From the NCBI GenBank assembly GCA_024405675.1, contig JAKSOH010000003.1, forward strand, positions 1 to 59,047: a stretch of 59,047 bases of DNA, read 5' to 3'. Below the pieces are notes generated by a model. The model was not told the DNA's origin and made no database searches. It saw nothing but the letters and a program-made list of their open reading frames with translations. A program made the position numbers and the translations under genes. This document shows, in pieces, positions 19,957 to 24,937 of this stretch. Each line of letters starts with the position of its first letter. Within the stretch, counting starts at the first letter, position 1. Source of the DNA: Victivallaceae bacterium (lineage in GTDB: Bacteria > Verrucomicrobiota > Lentisphaeria > Victivallales > Victivallaceae).

Positions 19957-21636
19957 ATGAACTCACGTCAAGGTTTATTGGCTTGCCTGATGGCGACAGC
20001 GGTGCTCGGCGGATGCTATAGCTATGAGAAGCCGCCAGTAGCGACAATGGGAACTACTTACACCGAACGCCAGCACGATGATGCGGACAATATGTTCGAC
20101 GGCATCACGAATCTCACGTTGGAGCAGGCTCAGGAAATAGCGCTCAAGAATAACACGACCTACATCATCGCGCACCACAATGTTGCTGCCGCGCACATGA
20201 GATTCCTGCAGTCCCTCAGTGGCTACCTGCCGAAGGTGACGGCGAGCGCTTCGCTTTCTCGGGGGCATTCCTGGCCGGGCACAGACAAGAACAGTCCGCC
20301 GCTCAGCGGAAACGCGGCACATCCCCGCGTCACGACCAACAACTTCGATGTCGGCGTGCAGGCAACCATGCTGTTCTTCGACGGCTTGCAGCGCGAGTTC
20401 GGAGTGATGGCGGCCAACCATGACGAGAAGTACTACAAGAATCTTGACGACGACGCTCGCCGCAACGTGCTTCAGGCCGTCGCCACCGCCTACAACGCGG
20501 TTTTGCTGAGTCGCGAGGGCCAGCGCATCGCCGAAGAGGACCGGCAATTCCAGTTGAGCTCGCTCAAGGAGGCCCGCTACAAGTTCGAGGCCGGAGCGGT
20601 TCCGCTTAGTGACGTGCTGAACTTCGAGATATTGGCGAACAACGCCGACGTCAAGATGATCGAGGCGACCGCAGATTATGTCACCGCGAAGTGCGCATTG
20701 GCCACGCTGCTCGGGTATCCAGACGGCGAGTTCCCGAAGAACGTCGAGTTCACCAGCGACTACAAGTCCGAATTCATTTCCCTGCCTCCGGTGGAGAAGT
20801 TTCTTGACGCGGCCCTCGCCAACCGCCCGGACCTCAAGGGATACAGGGAGCAGTTGCAGATTGCCAAGTATAACTTGTATTCGACTTACGGCACCTATTC
20901 GCCGACCGTCAGCGGCTTCCTGCGTTTCGGATACGGATCCAATTCCAGTACCAACCAGAACTATCCGTCTTCCTACTACGACTACACGCACACCTACACC
21001 AACGACACCTCGTTCTCCTACGGCCTGACGGCCGACTGGGTGGTGTTCTCGGGATTCGCCCGCTACAACCAGATGCGCGAACGCCAGGCGCAGGTCGCCA
21101 TCAGCGACTACACCGTGACCAGGCAGTGGCATCAGGTTGTCAACGATGTGCGTCTCGCATATACCAACTACAACCGCCAGATTGAGAATACCAAGAAGCT
21201 CCTTGAAATAAGGAACCTGAGCTTCCAGCAACGCGGACTGGTCGACGAGGAGTACCGCAACGGAAACACCGTCCTCACTCGTCTCAACGAGGCCCAGAAG
21301 GACTACACGAACGCCGAGTTGAATCTGGCGAATGGATACACCGGCATCCAGAACGCCAAGGCGCAGATGAAGGCTGCAGTCGGACTTGACAGTATAGACG
21401 AATTCCTCGTTCCTCAGCAAACCGATGGTAAGCCGCAGACGGCCCCGGTCGCTGAGGCGGCAGTCGCGCAAAAAACGGAACTTTCGTCCGAATCCGCTCC
21501 TGCCACCGCGGAAACTACGACTTCTGCAACAGCCGACACTGCCGAGGCTGCCGCTCCTGTCGCGGATCCGGTTCAAAACGCTCCAGCCCAGGCTGGCGAA
21601 TCCGCGGTGCCGGAGATTCCGGCCCGCGCCAGGTAG
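19957..21636 (+). CDS. TolC/OprM-family outer-membrane efflux lipoprotein with Ala/Pro/Thr tail
   Basis: 559 residues. The N-terminal signal ends in a lipobox (AVLGGC, Cys 22), so the protein is probably acylated as in OprM-type channels. Two repeats typical of outer-membrane efflux proteins follow: the first begins LTLEQAQEIALKNN near residue 50 with YKFEAGAVPLSDVLNFE, the second spans ~270-460 with YRNGNTVLTRLNEAQKDYTNAELNL. The last ~85 residues (from about 475) are a low-complexity Ala/Pro/Glu/Thr tail not needed for the barrel. No periplasmic adaptor or inner-membrane pump lies next to it, so its partners must be elsewhere. It begins a plus-strand series with def, a DUF1189-like gene and the D123 homologue. 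Confidence 0.88.
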   Translation: MNSRQGLLACLMATAVLGGCYSYEKPPVATMGTTYTERQHDDADNMFDGITNLTLEQAQEIALKNNTTYIIAHHNVAAAHMRFLQSLSGYLPKVTASASLSRGHSWPGTDKNSPPLSGNAAHPRVTTNNFDVGVQATMLFFDGLQREFGVMAANHDEKYYKNLDDDARRNVLQAVATAYNAVLLSREGQRIAEEDRQFQLSSLKEARYKFEAGAVPLSDVLNFEILANNADVKMIEATADYVTAKCALATLLGYPDGEFPKNVEFTSDYKSEFISLPPVEKFLDAALANRPDLKGYREQLQIAKYNLYSTYGTYSPTVSGFLRFGYGSNSSTNQNYPSSYYDYTHTYTNDTSFSYGLTADWVVFSGFARYNQMRERQAQVAISDYTVTRQWHQVVNDVRLAYTNYNRQIENTKKLLEIRNLSFQQRGLVDEEYRNGNTVLTRLNEAQKDYTNAELNLANGYTGIQNAKAQMKAAVGLDSIDEFLVPQQTDGKPQTAPVAEAAVAQKTELSSESAPATAETTTSATADTAEAAAPVADPVQNAPAQAGESAVPEIPARAR

Positions 21637-21683
21637 GCAGTCTCGTGGGCAGGCAGCGCGGAGATAGACGCGCATGTCCAGAC

Positions 21684-22250
21684 ATGCGCCTGATTGGTGA
21701 TGGTGTGCTTGCTCAAAAGGCGGCTCCCGTCGAGCGCATAGACAATTCAACGATAGATCTCGCAAACGACATGTTGGCGGCGATGCGGGCTCGCAACGGC
21801 ATTGGACTTGCCGCCCCGCAGATCGGCGTGTCGCTCCGCATGGTAGTCATCGACGTTCCATTTGATGAGGACGAGAAGCATAACGGGGCGGATGACGAAG
21901 CGATTCTGGCCAGCATGCCGCTCCTTTTGGTCAATCCCAAGATAATCGCGCTTTCCGGAGCGTTTGTCGAGCGCGACGAGGGGTGTCTTTCCATCCCCGG
22001 GCTGTATCTTCCTGTGATCCGGCAGGACATCGTGCGGGTTTCCTTTCAGGATGCCCGTGGAAAAAACATCGAGGCGGCATGCTCGGGATTACTCGGACGT
22101 TGCACTCAGCACGAGGTCGATCATCTGGATGGAATACTTTTCGTGGATCGCCTCTCTCCAGAGACGGCGTCCGGAGCCGCCGGCCGTCTAAATGAGGTGA
22201 AGCGCGACGCCGAACGTCGCGGATTCCGCATTCATTGCGCGGGCAAGTGA
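21684..22250 (+). CDS. def: Peptide deformylase
   Basis: 188 residues from the ATG at 21684. It removes the formyl group from nascent protein N-termini. The three deformylase motifs are complete: GIGLAAPQIG (39-48), EGCLSIPG (99-106) with metal ligand C101, and QHEVDHLDG (142-150) with H143, E144 and H147. The protein has an acidic insertion (DEDEKHNGADDEA) between motifs 1 and 2. A GTG at 21645 would add 13 residues; the shorter start aligns with usual deformylase N-termini, but neither has a strong ribosome binding site. No fmt gene is adjacent. It lies 47 bases after the TolC-like gene and 10 before the DUF1189-like gene. Confidence 0.93.
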   Translation: MRLIGDGVLAQKAAPVERIDNSTIDLANDMLAAMRARNGIGLAAPQIGVSLRMVVIDVPFDEDEKHNGADDEAILASMPLLLVNPKIIALSGAFVERDEGCLSIPGLYLPVIRQDIVRVSFQDARGKNIEAACSGLLGRCTQHEVDHLDGILFVDRLSPETASGAAGRLNEVKRDAERRGFRIHCAGK

Positions 22251-22260
22251 GGATTCGCCG

Positions 22261-23145
22261 ATGAACTTCTTCCGGACTTTATTCTGCATTTGTCGCGGAA
22301 CGTACGATTTTCCCGAACTTACGGAAAACAAAGTCTGGAAAGTTCTGTTCCATTTGTTGTTTCTCGTCTTCATTATGTCTGTGGTCGTTTCCTTCGGCAT
22401 GTCATACCGATTCAACAGCACGATGCGCCAGTTTGAGAAGGATTACAGCATCGCCTTCGGATCGGAAATCAAGTTCACAAGGGATGTAGGCATCGTTCCA
22501 AGCCGCAATCCCGAGCAGCCGCGTTCCATCCCCATGCCGTTCGGAGGCCGGCTGTTTTACGTTGGCACCACCCCGTCCACCAGTTCTGTGTCACCGCTTG
22601 GCATTTCCGGATTGAACTATTTCGTGCATTGGTCCGGAGGAATTCCGTCCCTGGTGATGCGCGTCAACAACGATGATGCGTCAGCTTCGGATTGGTTGAT
22701 CGGCAGGGAAGGCGAGATGCCGGTCCGGGTTTCCGGAGCAGAGGAGATGATAAGAATCGTTTCGTCCCGCCCGGAGGGAAGGCGCTGGCAGTGGGGCGAC
22801 ATGGAATCGATTTCTGTCAGCAACTTGTTCGACGGATTCCGTAGTGCTGCGTCATTTCTCTTCTTCTGGGCGCACTTCATCACGTCGCTTCTAACTGCGT
22901 TGTTTTTCTCGCTTTGCTTTTTCGTCCTGCATTCAATCTGGCGGGACCGCAAGTTGCGCGGCCTTAGATTGTTGAAAACCGTGATTTATGCGGGATTCCC
23001 GGCCATGATAATCGCCGGAATGTTCCCGGCGCTTGATTTGCCTGCGTTCAATTATTCGACGGTATATGTGTTCTGCCTCTTCGTGTACTGGTGGCCGGTA
23101 TCGGCCCGCATGGAGAGGGAACTCGCTAAAGAGGAAAGGAGTTGA
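22261..23145 (+). CDS. DUF1189-like integral membrane protein
   Basis: 294 residues. One N-terminal transmembrane segment (about 27-48) is followed by a ~150-residue extracytoplasmic domain. Three to four C-terminal transmembrane segments (from about 200: FLFFWAHFITSLLTALFFSLCFFV, VIYAGFPAMIIAGMF, VYVFCLFVYWWPV) complete it. This layout and the opening FFRTLFCICRGTYDFPELTENK resemble DUF1189 proteins, whose role is unknown. The extracytoplasmic domain contains Gly/Ser-rich turns but no recognisable active site. The start follows the def stop by 10 bases with GTGAGGA before it, and the stop lies 4 bases before the D123-like gene, so the two are probably co-translated. Family assignment is tentative. 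Confidence 0.65.
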   Translation: MNFFRTLFCICRGTYDFPELTENKVWKVLFHLLFLVFIMSVVVSFGMSYRFNSTMRQFEKDYSIAFGSEIKFTRDVGIVPSRNPEQPRSIPMPFGGRLFYVGTTPSTSSVSPLGISGLNYFVHWSGGIPSLVMRVNNDDASASDWLIGREGEMPVRVSGAEEMIRIVSSRPEGRRWQWGDMESISVSNLFDGFRSAASFLFFWAHFITSLLTALFFSLCFFVLHSIWRDRKLRGLRLLKTVIYAGFPAMIIAGMFPALDLPAFNYSTVYVFCLFVYWWPVSARMERELAKEERS

Positions 23146-23149
23146 TGCC

Positions 23150-23881
23150 ATGCTGGTACACGATGATCTAATGAGCCTGCCGAAGTGGTATCCGGTTCTG
23201 CACGCCTACACCTTCCCAACCAGTTTCGTCACGCTGACGGACGAGCAGCTGGCGATTTTGCGTCGGGATGATTCCGCGGATTGCATCAGCTATCCCGCCA
23301 TCAAGGAGTTGCTGGCAACCATGCGCAACGAGCTAGAGGACATAAGCGGCAACTGCTTCGCTGGCGTCGATTGCTGCAGTCCGACCGATACAGACCGCTT
23401 CCGCGATAAACGCGGCGCGACCTATTCGGCGAATAGCACGCTCCTGAATCTCATGCACAGCGACAAGGTACGCGAGGCGATACGCGAAGGCAAGGTTACT
23501 TCCATTTGCTTGCGTCCGTTCCGCAGAATGCAGCCGGCGCGCGAGTTTCGGCTTTTTATTACCTGTGGCGAGCTCGTCGCCATGAGCCAGTATCATCTGA
23601 CAAGGCATTTCCGCCGTTTGGCTGGCGCGAGGGAGAAGTACTGGAACCTGGCTTACGATTTTGTAAAGGTCGTGCGCAATCTCCTGCCGGATGAGAATAT
23701 CGTCATGGATATTTACGTGAGTGCTACCGGAACGATTTACATTGTCGATTTTAATCCATGGGGCGAGCCCACCGATCCCAAGATGCTCATCCGTTGGGAT
23801 CGCGACTGGAGCAAGGAAATCGGCATAGTGCTTATGGAACCTCCGCTGCCGTTGTCCGGGGATGTGAACGTCTCCTTCTAA
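23150..23881 (+). CDS. CDC123/D123-family ATP-grasp-like protein
   Basis: 243 residues. The sequence follows the D123 pattern: WYPVLHAYTFPTSFVTLTDEQ at the N-terminus, a basic middle block, REFRLFITCGELVAMSQYH (the equivalent of the eukaryotic REFRVFV...ISQR region) and NIVMDIYVSATGTIYIVDFNPWGEPTDP, where the DxY and DFNP acidic residues would bind Mg-ATP. Eukaryotic CDC123 helps assemble initiation factor eIF2, which bacteria lack, so the bacterial target is unknown. The start is set by AGGAG eight bases before the ATG. It is the last gene of the TolC-def-DUF1189 series and is followed by a terminator. Confidence 0.72.
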   Translation: MLVHDDLMSLPKWYPVLHAYTFPTSFVTLTDEQLAILRRDDSADCISYPAIKELLATMRNELEDISGNCFAGVDCCSPTDTDRFRDKRGATYSANSTLLNLMHSDKVREAIREGKVTSICLRPFRRMQPAREFRLFITCGELVAMSQYHLTRHFRRLAGAREKYWNLAYDFVKVVRNLLPDENIVMDIYVSATGTIYIVDFNPWGEPTDPKMLIRWDRDWSKEIGIVLMEPPLPLSGDVNVSF

Positions 23882-23901
23882 CCGGTGCTCGACAACAAAA
23901 G

Positions 23902-23927
23902 ACCCGATCGCCTTCAGGCGATCGGGT
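23902..23927. terminator. Bidirectional terminator between the D123-like gene and the tRNA pair
   Basis: An 11-bp perfect stem (ACCCGATCGCC / GGCGATCGGGT) with a TTCA loop. Tails are TGTTTTGT on the plus strand and CTTTTGTTG on the minus strand. Confidence 0.85.
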
Positions 23928-23938
23928 TGTTTTGTCAA

Positions 23939-24015
23939 TGGTGGGCGCAGCAGAACTCGAATCTGCGACCCCTGCCGTGTGAAAGCAGTGCTCTAACCGA
24001 CTGAGCCATGCGCCC
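23939..24015 (-). tRNA. tRNA-Val (CAC)
   Basis: A 77-base cloverleaf including an encoded CCA. Acceptor stem GGGCGCA/TGCGCCC, D arm GGCTCAGTCGGTTAGAGC, anticodon loop TTCACAC giving CAC, and T loop TTCGAGT. It is the second gene of a two-tRNA transcript ending at the bidirectional terminator. Confidence 0.95.
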
Positions 24016-24021
24016 ATTGAG

Positions 24022-24096
24022 TGGCATCTCCAACGGGATTCGAACCCATATTGCCAGGATGAAAACCTGATGTCCTAACCCTTAGACGATGGAGAC
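24022..24096 (-). tRNA. tRNA-Glu (TTC)
   Basis: 75 bases with an encoded CCA. Anticodon loop TTTTCAT gives TTC; T loop TTCGAAT. The acceptor stem opens with a G1-T72 wobble pair and the discriminator base is G. First gene of the tRNA-Glu/tRNA-Val pair. Confidence 0.94.
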
Positions 24097-24184: not shown

Positions 24185-24808
24185 TTAGCATTCAGGATAC
24201 CGACGCGCCACGATGGCGCGGATTCGTTCGTCGGGGAAACGCTTTGCCATGGTTCCGCCAGTTGACAATATCACGTTTTTAAAGGCGACGAAAGCGGTTT
24301 CGCCATCCCCGTGAATCGGGGGGAGGGCGGCGCAACGATCCAAGGCCAGCAGCACTTCGCCGGCTATCTTCCCTGCCATGGTCGTGAAGTCCATGTTTCC
24401 GGACTTCGCCATGGCGTTGAACAATACGACTTCTGTTCTCGGGTATCCGGAACAGATCAGGTTCCATGGATCCGGGCAAGTCGAAGCGTCATTGCTATTC
24501 CTGAAATCGGTACGCAGAAGTACTGCGGGAATGTCCAGCATCTTCGCAATGCAGAACTCGGCCACCGTGCCGGAATCGAGATCCGCTCCATCGAAGTTCG
24601 CTACGAACGCATCGGCGGAGAACAGCGCTTCGAAATCATCGTCTCTAATGCTCGTGCCCCGGTCGCTGTTGGAAGGATTTTCCTGCGGCAACAACGCCTT
24701 CCATCTTCCCTGTGCCGCGCTGTTGAAGGCATCGGCCAACAGCTTGTTGCCGACAAGTTCCTTGAAATCGAAGAGTCCTCCTCCCCAATAGATTGTTTTG
24801 TGGTCCAT
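24185..24808 (-). CDS. Nucleoside 2-deoxyribosyltransferase-like protein
   Basis: 207 residues from ATG 24808. It opens IYWGGGLFDFKELVGNKLLADAF, matching the family's substrate-entry region. The acidic stretch RDDDFEALFSADAFVANFDG and then DSGTVAEFCIAKML follow; the latter holds the catalytic Glu in the usual SGTxxExG-like context. Such enzymes swap bases on deoxynucleosides, or hydrolyse them, in salvage. The C-terminal ~60 residues are less typical. The ribosome binding site is poor. The start is supported by the promoter at 24938-24966, which would place the transcript start near 24931 and so rule out the longer reading frame. It ends 88 bases from the tRNA pair and is transcribed alone. 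Confidence 0.75.
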   Translation of the reverse strand: MDHKTIYWGGGLFDFKELVGNKLLADAFNSAAQGRWKALLPQENPSNSDRGTSIRDDDFEALFSADAFVANFDGADLDSGTVAEFCIAKMLDIPAVLLRTDFRNSNDASTCPDPWNLICSGYPRTEVVLFNAMAKSGNMDFTTMAGKIAGEVLLALDRCAALPPIHGDGETAFVAFKNVILSTGGTMAKRFPDERIRAIVARRYPEC

Positions 24809-24937
24809 TTTCTGATATTCCGTAAAGTTTCCCGTTCGTGCCGTGTATGTGTGCGAAATGAGCGCGGCGTAGTCCGTAGATTCATCGCGAACAACAAGAC
24901 TCCACCTTTTTTGCAATGGAGATTTTACCACGCACTT

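What the first reader, a model, noticed from the sequence alone, without database searches (positions are those of the whole stretch)
22261..23881. Bacterial CDC123/D123 homologue coupled to a membrane protein and peptide deformylase
D123 proteins are known mainly as eukaryotic eIF2 assembly factors. Here an ATP-grasp-like homologue sits 4 bases after a DUF1189-like membrane gene and in the same run as def. The bacterial target is unknown and eIF2 does not exist in bacteria.
Basis: partly seen in the sequence, partly recalled or inferred. Interest (0 to 1): 0.55.

Follow-up and report, generated by a model that had tools for sequence, protein, structure and literature searches.

The report
Bacterial CDC123 relative missing key lysines
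A gut bacterium and many of its relatives carry a cousin of the eukaryotic translation helper CDC123 as an ordinary conserved gene, usually last in an operon with peptide deformylase and a membrane protein, and this cousin has lost two basic residues thought to hold ATP.

Summary
Window 23150-23881 encodes a 243-aa D123/CDC123 protein (PF07065, E 5.7e-21). Its predicted structure matches human and S. pombe Cdc123 at Z about 24 (2.2 A over 229 residues for 8phd), against 11.1 for the next fold. It starts 4 bases after a Yip1/DUF1189-like membrane gene (MEM), which follows def. The arrangement is conserved: def-MEM-D123 in 42 of 44 loci of the order. D123 occurs in 75 of 98 sampled genomes of the class and 0 of 190 from other classes of the phylum, and is about as conserved as Def.

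New here: 0 of 58 sequences of this class have Lys or Arg at either R2K position (human K104, R111), while 4 of 4 other bacterial D123s have both. The acidic/metal residues and ExR are kept. In a second family, D123 follows map-ffh (4 of 4 loci). This looks like a third kind of bacterial CDC123, beside the toxin-linked and effector-like kinds in print.

Best reading: an ATP- or ligand-binding assembly/regulatory factor near nascent-chain processing, not a canonical peptide ligase; partner unknown. Against it: def-MEM also exists without D123, some genomes lack D123, other contexts are unrelated, and EF-Tu shows no matching change.

The parts
19957..21636 (+). TolC-family outer membrane protein, first gene of the conserved run
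   Evidence: TIGR01844 E 1.6e-32, below that model's curated cut-off; a TolC-cluster gene in 38 of 44 loci
21645..22250 (+). def, peptide deformylase
   Evidence: PF01327 E 1.3e-46; TIGR00079 above cut-off
22261..23145 (+). MEM: Yip1/DUF1189-clan membrane protein with a helix-sheet-helix layout; a likely periplasmic beta-rich domain lies between its first helix and three later ones (topology inferred)
   Evidence: DUF1189 in 27 of 37 relatives; AF2 model pLDDT 92.8; no solved-structure match at E<=0.001
23135..23141 (+). Ribosome-binding site (AAAGGAG) of D123
   Evidence: read from sequence
23150..23881 (+). D123/CDC123-family ATP-grasp protein, 243 aa
   Evidence: PF07065 E 5.7e-21; AF2 pLDDT 92.4, pTM 0.86; Foldseek ranks 1-10 are all Cdc123; VIA Z 24.2
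23363..23365 (+). Codon of Gly72, the position of human K104 (R2K lysine 1): no Lys/Arg in 58 of 58 class sequences
23384..23386 (+). Codon of Thr79, the position of human R111 (inferred second R2K basic residue): no Lys/Arg in 58 of 58
23708..23710 (+). Codon of Asp187 = human D233, kept in 58 of 58
23747..23755 (+). Codons of Asp200-x-Asn202 = human D246xN248; D in 58 of 58, N in 57 of 58
23858..23878 (+). Conserved C-terminal tail GDVNVSF; the pattern G-x-[VIL]-x-[VI]-x-[FY] ends 52 of 58 proteins
23901..23928 (+). Hairpin with T-rich tail, probable terminator of the run; also a terminator-like match on the other strand, towards the convergent tRNA genes' 3' side

Best explanation
This is a true bacterial member of the CDC123 (R2K.1) family and a conserved, mostly vertically inherited gene of the class Lentisphaeria. 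Shown: family, fold, operon, strong conservation, and loss of both R2K basic residues with the acidic ATP-grasp residues and ExR kept. Inferred: without the phosphate-gripping residues it is unlikely to be a standard ATP-grasp peptide ligase. It would bind Mg-nucleotide or another anionic ligand in a remodelled pocket (class-invariant R125 and R131, near-invariant K106; in the order also R83 and K87) and work as a protein-binding assembly or regulatory factor, as eukaryotic CDC123 does for eIF2. Its genomic company (def-MEM in the order, map-ffh in a second family, gltX in part of the order) points to proteins acting on nascent chains or at the membrane as the likely client. The client, the ligand and the role of the conserved C-terminal tail are unknown.
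For: Family and fold: PF07065 E 5.7e-21; human CDC123 E 3e-17 by profile over residues 118-219; VIA Z 24.2, 2.2 A over 229 residues against Z 11.1 for the next fold. Residues: 0 of 58 with Lys/Arg at the K104 or R111 positions, 4 of 4 other bacterial D123s with R and K there; D187 58/58, D200 58/58, N202 57/58, E132 and R134 58/58. Context: def-MEM-D123 42 of 44, MEM-D123 43 of 44 plus 5 of 5 further order loci; map-ffh-D123 in 4 of 4 loci of family f11. Constraint: mean identity 0.492 against 0.499 for Def over the same 630 pairs, and correlated distances (Mantel r 0.82, 37 loci). CDC123 as an eIF2 assembly factor: PMC8844851 (abstract and passages). Human A109V, in the ATP pocket beside these positions, changes ATPase activity: PMC12860950 (abstract and passages).
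Against: No direct evidence of any partner or of nucleotide binding. def-MEM exists without an adjacent D123 (10 loci). 23 of 98 class genomes lack a PF07065 match, including 13 of 13 of family f10. In families f9, f12, f13 and f14 the neighbours are not translation genes. An acyl-CoA ligase-like gene follows D123 in 4 of 9 class loci. MreC and PBP2 (3 loci) or McsA-McsB (5 loci) follow it in parts of the order. EF-Tu, the nearest bacterial relative of eIF2gamma, has no C-terminal extension and no change tracking D123 in the 24 of 25 genomes read.
Confidence: 0.4

Rival explanations
1. It is still an active ATP-grasp peptide or amino-acid ligase; the two R2K roles were taken over by other invariant basic residues (R83/K87 in the order, K106, R125, R131 in the class), and it tags a protein, perhaps its own conserved C-terminal tail or MEM.
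For: D187, D200, N202 and ExR are kept; K106, R125 and R131 are nearly or fully invariant in the class and two of them are not in most other D123s; R2K proteins were proposed as peptide ligases (PMC4431377); the tail is conserved to the last residue in 49 of 58 as [VI]SF.
Against: Both phosphate-side basic residues are absent in 58 of 58; R83 and K87 are not conserved in the 9 sequences outside the order; no ligase activity has been shown even for eukaryotic CDC123 in the passages I read.
Confidence: 0.25
2. The neighbourhood says little about function: D123 is a general cytosolic factor, or an envelope-related one, that became fixed behind def-MEM in one order and behind map-ffh in one family by chance.
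For: def-MEM without adjacent D123; varied neighbours elsewhere, including MreC/PBP2, McsA-McsB, acyl-CoA ligase and DAHP synthase; TolC and MEM are envelope proteins.
Against: MEM-D123 adjacency in 48 of 49 order loci across several families; two separate contexts with factors that act on nascent chains.
Confidence: 0.25
3. It is a toxin-system or secreted-effector CDC123, as proposed for the bacterial members described in 2015.
For: Other bacterial D123s do sit beside SMI1/KNR4 genes (3 of 4 plasmid loci) and one with VgrG and PAAR.
Against: No such gene was recognised beside D123 in the 44 order loci or 9 class loci (recurrent clusters and short previews, not a full annotation). The gene is conserved like Def and tracks it. 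The active-site pattern differs.
Confidence: 0.04
4. It is a decaying or inert relic.
For: Loss of the R2K basic residues; absent from some genomes of the order.
Against: Identity as high as Def and many invariant residues argue for strong selection.
Confidence: 0.04

Closest known systems
Eukaryotic CDC123 (human, S. pombe), eIF2 assembly factor
   Same: Same fold over nearly the whole length (Z about 24); same D233, D246xN248, E177xR179; N-terminal W-Y shared (W 56 of 58, Y 57 of 58).
   Different: No Lys/Arg at K104 or R111; eIF2 does not exist in bacteria; a class-specific C-terminal tail; found in operons with def or map-ffh.
Other bacterial CDC123 (R2K.1), polymorphic-toxin/T6SS linked or Legionella-type (PMC4431377)
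   Same: Same Pfam family and ATP-grasp C-lobe.
   Different: 4 of 4 examined keep R at the K104 position and K at the R111 position, and have E-x-N rather than D-x-N; 3 of 4 sit beside SMI1/KNR4 genes.
R2K families 2 and 3 (PF18299, PF14243)
   Same: Weak profile matches (E 0.0021 and 3.8e-5).
   Different: Both are below their cut-offs; D123 is stronger by many orders of magnitude.
DUF1189 / Yip1-clan membrane proteins (for MEM)
   Same: 27 of 37 match DUF1189 and 10 of 37 match Yip1 at E<=0.01.
   Different: The window's own match is below the cut-off; no solved structure matches at E<=0.001.

Membership tests
D123/CDC123 (PF07065) | Profile score above the curated cut-off | tested here: met
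   75.4 bits against 24; also 7 of 7 further D123 proteins scanned
D123/CDC123 (PF07065) | CDC123 fold | tested here: met
   Foldseek ranks 1-10; VIA Z 23.6-24.3 for six entries
D123/CDC123 (PF07065) | Acidic residue of strand 4 and [DE]xN of the last strand (human D233, D246xN248) | tested here: met
   D187, D200, N202; 58/58, 58/58, 57/58
[quoted passage not shown]
   E132, R134 in 58 of 58
R2K ATP-grasp clade | Absolutely conserved lysine of RAGNYA strand 2 (human K104) | tested here: not met
   Gly in the window; no Lys/Arg in 58 of 58 (two have His); R in 4 of 4 other bacterial D123s
R2K ATP-grasp clade | Second Lys/Arg in the following loop (taken here as human R111) | tested here: not met
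   Thr in the window; no Lys/Arg in 58 of 58; K in 4 of 4 others. That R111 is the second residue is my inference; the paper's figure is not held
CDC123 as eIF2 assembly factor | Binds eIF2gamma domain 3 and promotes eIF2 assembly | not testable with these tools
   eIF2 is absent from bacteria (established knowledge)
CDC123, ATP binding/ATPase | Binds and hydrolyses ATP | not testable with these tools
   needs protein
Polymorphic-toxin/T6SS CDC123 | Gene beside VgrG, PAAR, Hcp or SUKH (SMI1/KNR4) genes | tested here: not met
   Conserved neighbours are TolC, Def, MEM, GltX; none of those genes recognised; not every neighbour was scanned

The most novel reading that the evidence does not exclude
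Lentisphaeria possess a bacterial translation-side assembly factor of the CDC123 family that lost the R2K lysines and serves nascent-chain processing or membrane insertion (Def, Map, Ffh, MEM). The eukaryotic eIF2 factor would then echo an older bacterial role beside the translation machinery, rather than only a toxin-system origin.
Probability: 0.15. Interest if true: 0.8.

Novelty: new variant of a known kind. Interest (0 to 1): 0.5.

Why it matters
CDC123 is a eukaryotic translation protein (essential in yeast) whose biochemistry is still debated, and its bacterial relatives were put down to conflict systems. A conserved bacterial version with a naturally stripped ATP-grasp site, in operons with nascent-chain processing genes, gives a tractable way to ask which part of the CDC123 fold does the work: the ligase-like site or the protein-binding surface. 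It also bears on where the eukaryotic factor came from.

Tried and rejected
EF-Tu as the bacterial counterpart of eIF2gamma: searched in 25 genomes with and without D123. Of 25, 24 sequences were read (L157/G036 was not recovered by my script). All 24 end at the normal C-terminus. A VGAG to VASG change near the end occurs in the order whether or not D123 is present (D123-lacking G051 and G056 have it) and also in f10 genome G124, so it does not track D123. Rejected as evidence.

A closer link of this group to eukaryotic CDC123: the N-terminal segment is more like human (mean BLOSUM score 14.0 for the order, 20.9 for the class, -6.0 for the 4 other bacterial proteins), but the catalytic lobe is not (130.5, 125.2, 142.8) and the S. 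pombe segment favours the others. No tree was built, and no claim about ancestry is made.

Phage or viral origin: no match in phage records, and none confirmed of 19 candidate stretches in viral contigs. Plasmid records: 1 match for P0001.

First alignment attempt used loci on the wrong strand and was discarded; one search replaces it. One search printed 41 of 44 for def-MEM-D123; L042 was missed because a second def paralogue scored higher, and one search shows its def directly before MEM, so I count 42.

MEM fold: no match at E<=0.001; VIA was not run for MEM. Not examined for toxin-system genes by profile: every neighbour; only recurrent clusters, previews and selected proteins were looked at.

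Literature, six searches: none of the listed titles or abstract starts showed an experimental study of a bacterial CDC123 or of a def-D123 operon; only open-licence PMC papers are covered. Read: PMC4431377 (abstract, section 3 parts 1-2 of 4, section 7); PMC12860950, PMC8844851, PMC6412873 and PMC6682643 (passages only).

Full report
What is there. The window holds tolC (19957-21636), def (21645-22250), a membrane gene here called MEM (22261-23145) and D123 (23150-23881), all on the + strand with gaps of 8, 10 and 4 bases, followed by a hairpin with a T-rich tail (23901-23928) and then two tRNA genes on the other strand. The D123 start at 23150 has AAAGGAG before it. The genome is a 1.64-Mb draft, 71% complete, and its nearest named relatives are Lentisphaeria/Lentisphaerae MAGs (47-51% identity).

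Family and fold. PF07065 matches at E 5.7e-21, the only match in the genome; none of 14 control genomes has one. By sequence the C-terminal half aligns with human CDC123 (E 5.8e-13 alone; 3e-17 with a profile). The AlphaFold2 model from 25 class sequences is confident (pLDDT 92.4, pTM 0.86). Foldseek's first ten hits are all Cdc123, and VIA-align gives Z 23.6-24.3 for six Cdc123 entries against 11.1 for the next fold, carbamoyl phosphate synthetase. So it is CDC123-like along its whole length, not only in the lobe that the sequence profile sees.

Active site. Burroughs et al. 2015 (PMC4431377) define the R2K clade by two basic residues in the RAGNYA domain (human K104 and a second Lys/Arg shortly after), an acidic residue (D233), D246xN248 and ExR. 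With the PDB chain offset of 20, checked on D233, D246 and N248, human K104 falls on window Gly72 and R111 on Thr79, in a stretch aligned without gaps. That R111 is the second basic residue is my inference: it is K in 4 of 4 other bacterial D123s, while the K123 column is not basic in them. In 58 of 58 sequences of this class (49 of the order, 9 outside it; no pair above 92% identity) there is no Lys or Arg at either place; two have His at the first. The 4 comparison proteins have R and K. D187, D200, E132 and R134 are in 58 of 58 and N202 in 57 of 58. New basic residues are R125 and R131 (58 of 58) and K106 (56 of 58, plus one Arg); R83 and K87 are invariant in the order (49 of 49) but not in the 9 others. 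The proteins also share a C-terminal tail, G-x-[VIL]-x-[VI]-x-[FY], in 52 of 58; of the six without it, L046 is cut by a contig end, three are the f8 family, and L061 and L068 end differently.

Spread. Of 60 relatives, 50 have the gene, one match each. In 288 genomes sampled from the phylum 75 have a PF07065 match, all in the class. From together the class has 98 of the 288: 75 with and 23 without; all 13 of family f10 lack it, as do the 190 genomes of other classes. One order genome counted as lacking it (G053) has a contig-cut copy, and one (G154) has two fragments at contig ends. D123 identity over 630 shared pairs is 0.492, Def 0.499, MEM 0.235; D123 and Def distances correlate (r 0.82, Mantel p 0.001, 37 loci). 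This is the behaviour of a conserved resident gene, unlike the patchy spread described for other bacterial members.

Neighbours. Among 44 order loci, MEM is directly upstream of D123 in 43 and def-MEM-D123 is complete in 42; the exceptions are L056 (D123 and def-MEM on different contigs, L149) and L046 (no def found). Five further order loci have MEM-D123. TolC is in 38 loci and GltX in 11. Downstream, 5 loci have McsA-McsB (NCBIfam on L003) and 3 have MreC, an unidentified membrane protein and PBP2 (named on L071). Outside the order, in family f11, D123 follows map and ffh in 4 of 4 loci. In f9, f12, f13 and f14 it has other neighbours. Against a tight D123-MEM bond: def-MEM stands together without adjacent D123 in 10 of 14 MEM loci fetched for this purpose, Def confirmed by Pfam in all ten; across the class, presence is 71 both, 4 D123 only, 14 MEM only, 9 neither, with five of the 71 having only weak, non-adjacent MEM relatives.

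How it may work. The kept acidic residues and ExR argue that the pocket is still used; the missing basic residues argue against standard ligase chemistry. Eukaryotic CDC123 acts as an assembly factor for eIF2 (PMC8844851) and its ATPase rate matters (PMC12860950). Since two separate contexts place this gene beside Def or Map-Ffh, I favour a protein-binding factor on the nascent-chain or membrane side. This step is inference. EF-Tu gave no support.

Relation to print. Bacterial CDC123s, one from Lentisphaera araneosa, were reported in 2015 and sorted into toxin-linked and effector-like types. The class-wide def-MEM-D123 operon, the map-ffh context and the loss of both R2K residues were not in the parts of that paper I read (abstract, section 3 parts 1-2, section 7), and no listing in six searches showed them. 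Loss of activity in some lineages (apicomplexans) was noted there, so a stripped CDC123 is not without precedent.

Noticed in passing
L142-L145, L149, L152-L156: A def gene followed by a Yip1/DUF1189-like membrane gene, without D123 beside it; the def-MEM pair seems older than the D123 operon and itself has no known explanation.
   Followed up: partly
window 23858-23878: A C-terminal tail G-x-[VIL]-x-[VI]-x-[FY] conserved to the last residue in 52 of 58 proteins, suggesting that the free C-terminus is recognised by something.
   Followed up: partly
L002, L003, L004, L062, L066: McsA-McsB (protein arginine kinase) genes directly after D123.
   Followed up: no
L071, L073, L074: MreC and PBP2 genes follow D123 in family f8, whose D123s lack the tail.
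   Followed up: no
window 23939-24096: tRNA-Val(CAC) and tRNA-Glu(TTC) on the other strand, convergent with D123.
   Followed up: no
window 24185-24931: Nucleoside 2-deoxyribosyltransferase-like gene (PF05014 E 3.5e-8); a relative lies two genes upstream of def in L061.
   Followed up: no
EF-Tu loci L159, L162, L163, L172, L173, L176, L178, L181, L174: EF-Tu ends with TVASG in place of the usual TVGAG motif in the order and in one f10 genome.
   Followed up: partly
L106, L107, L108, L109: An acyl-CoA ligase-like gene directly follows D123 in 4 of 9 class loci outside the order.
   Followed up: no
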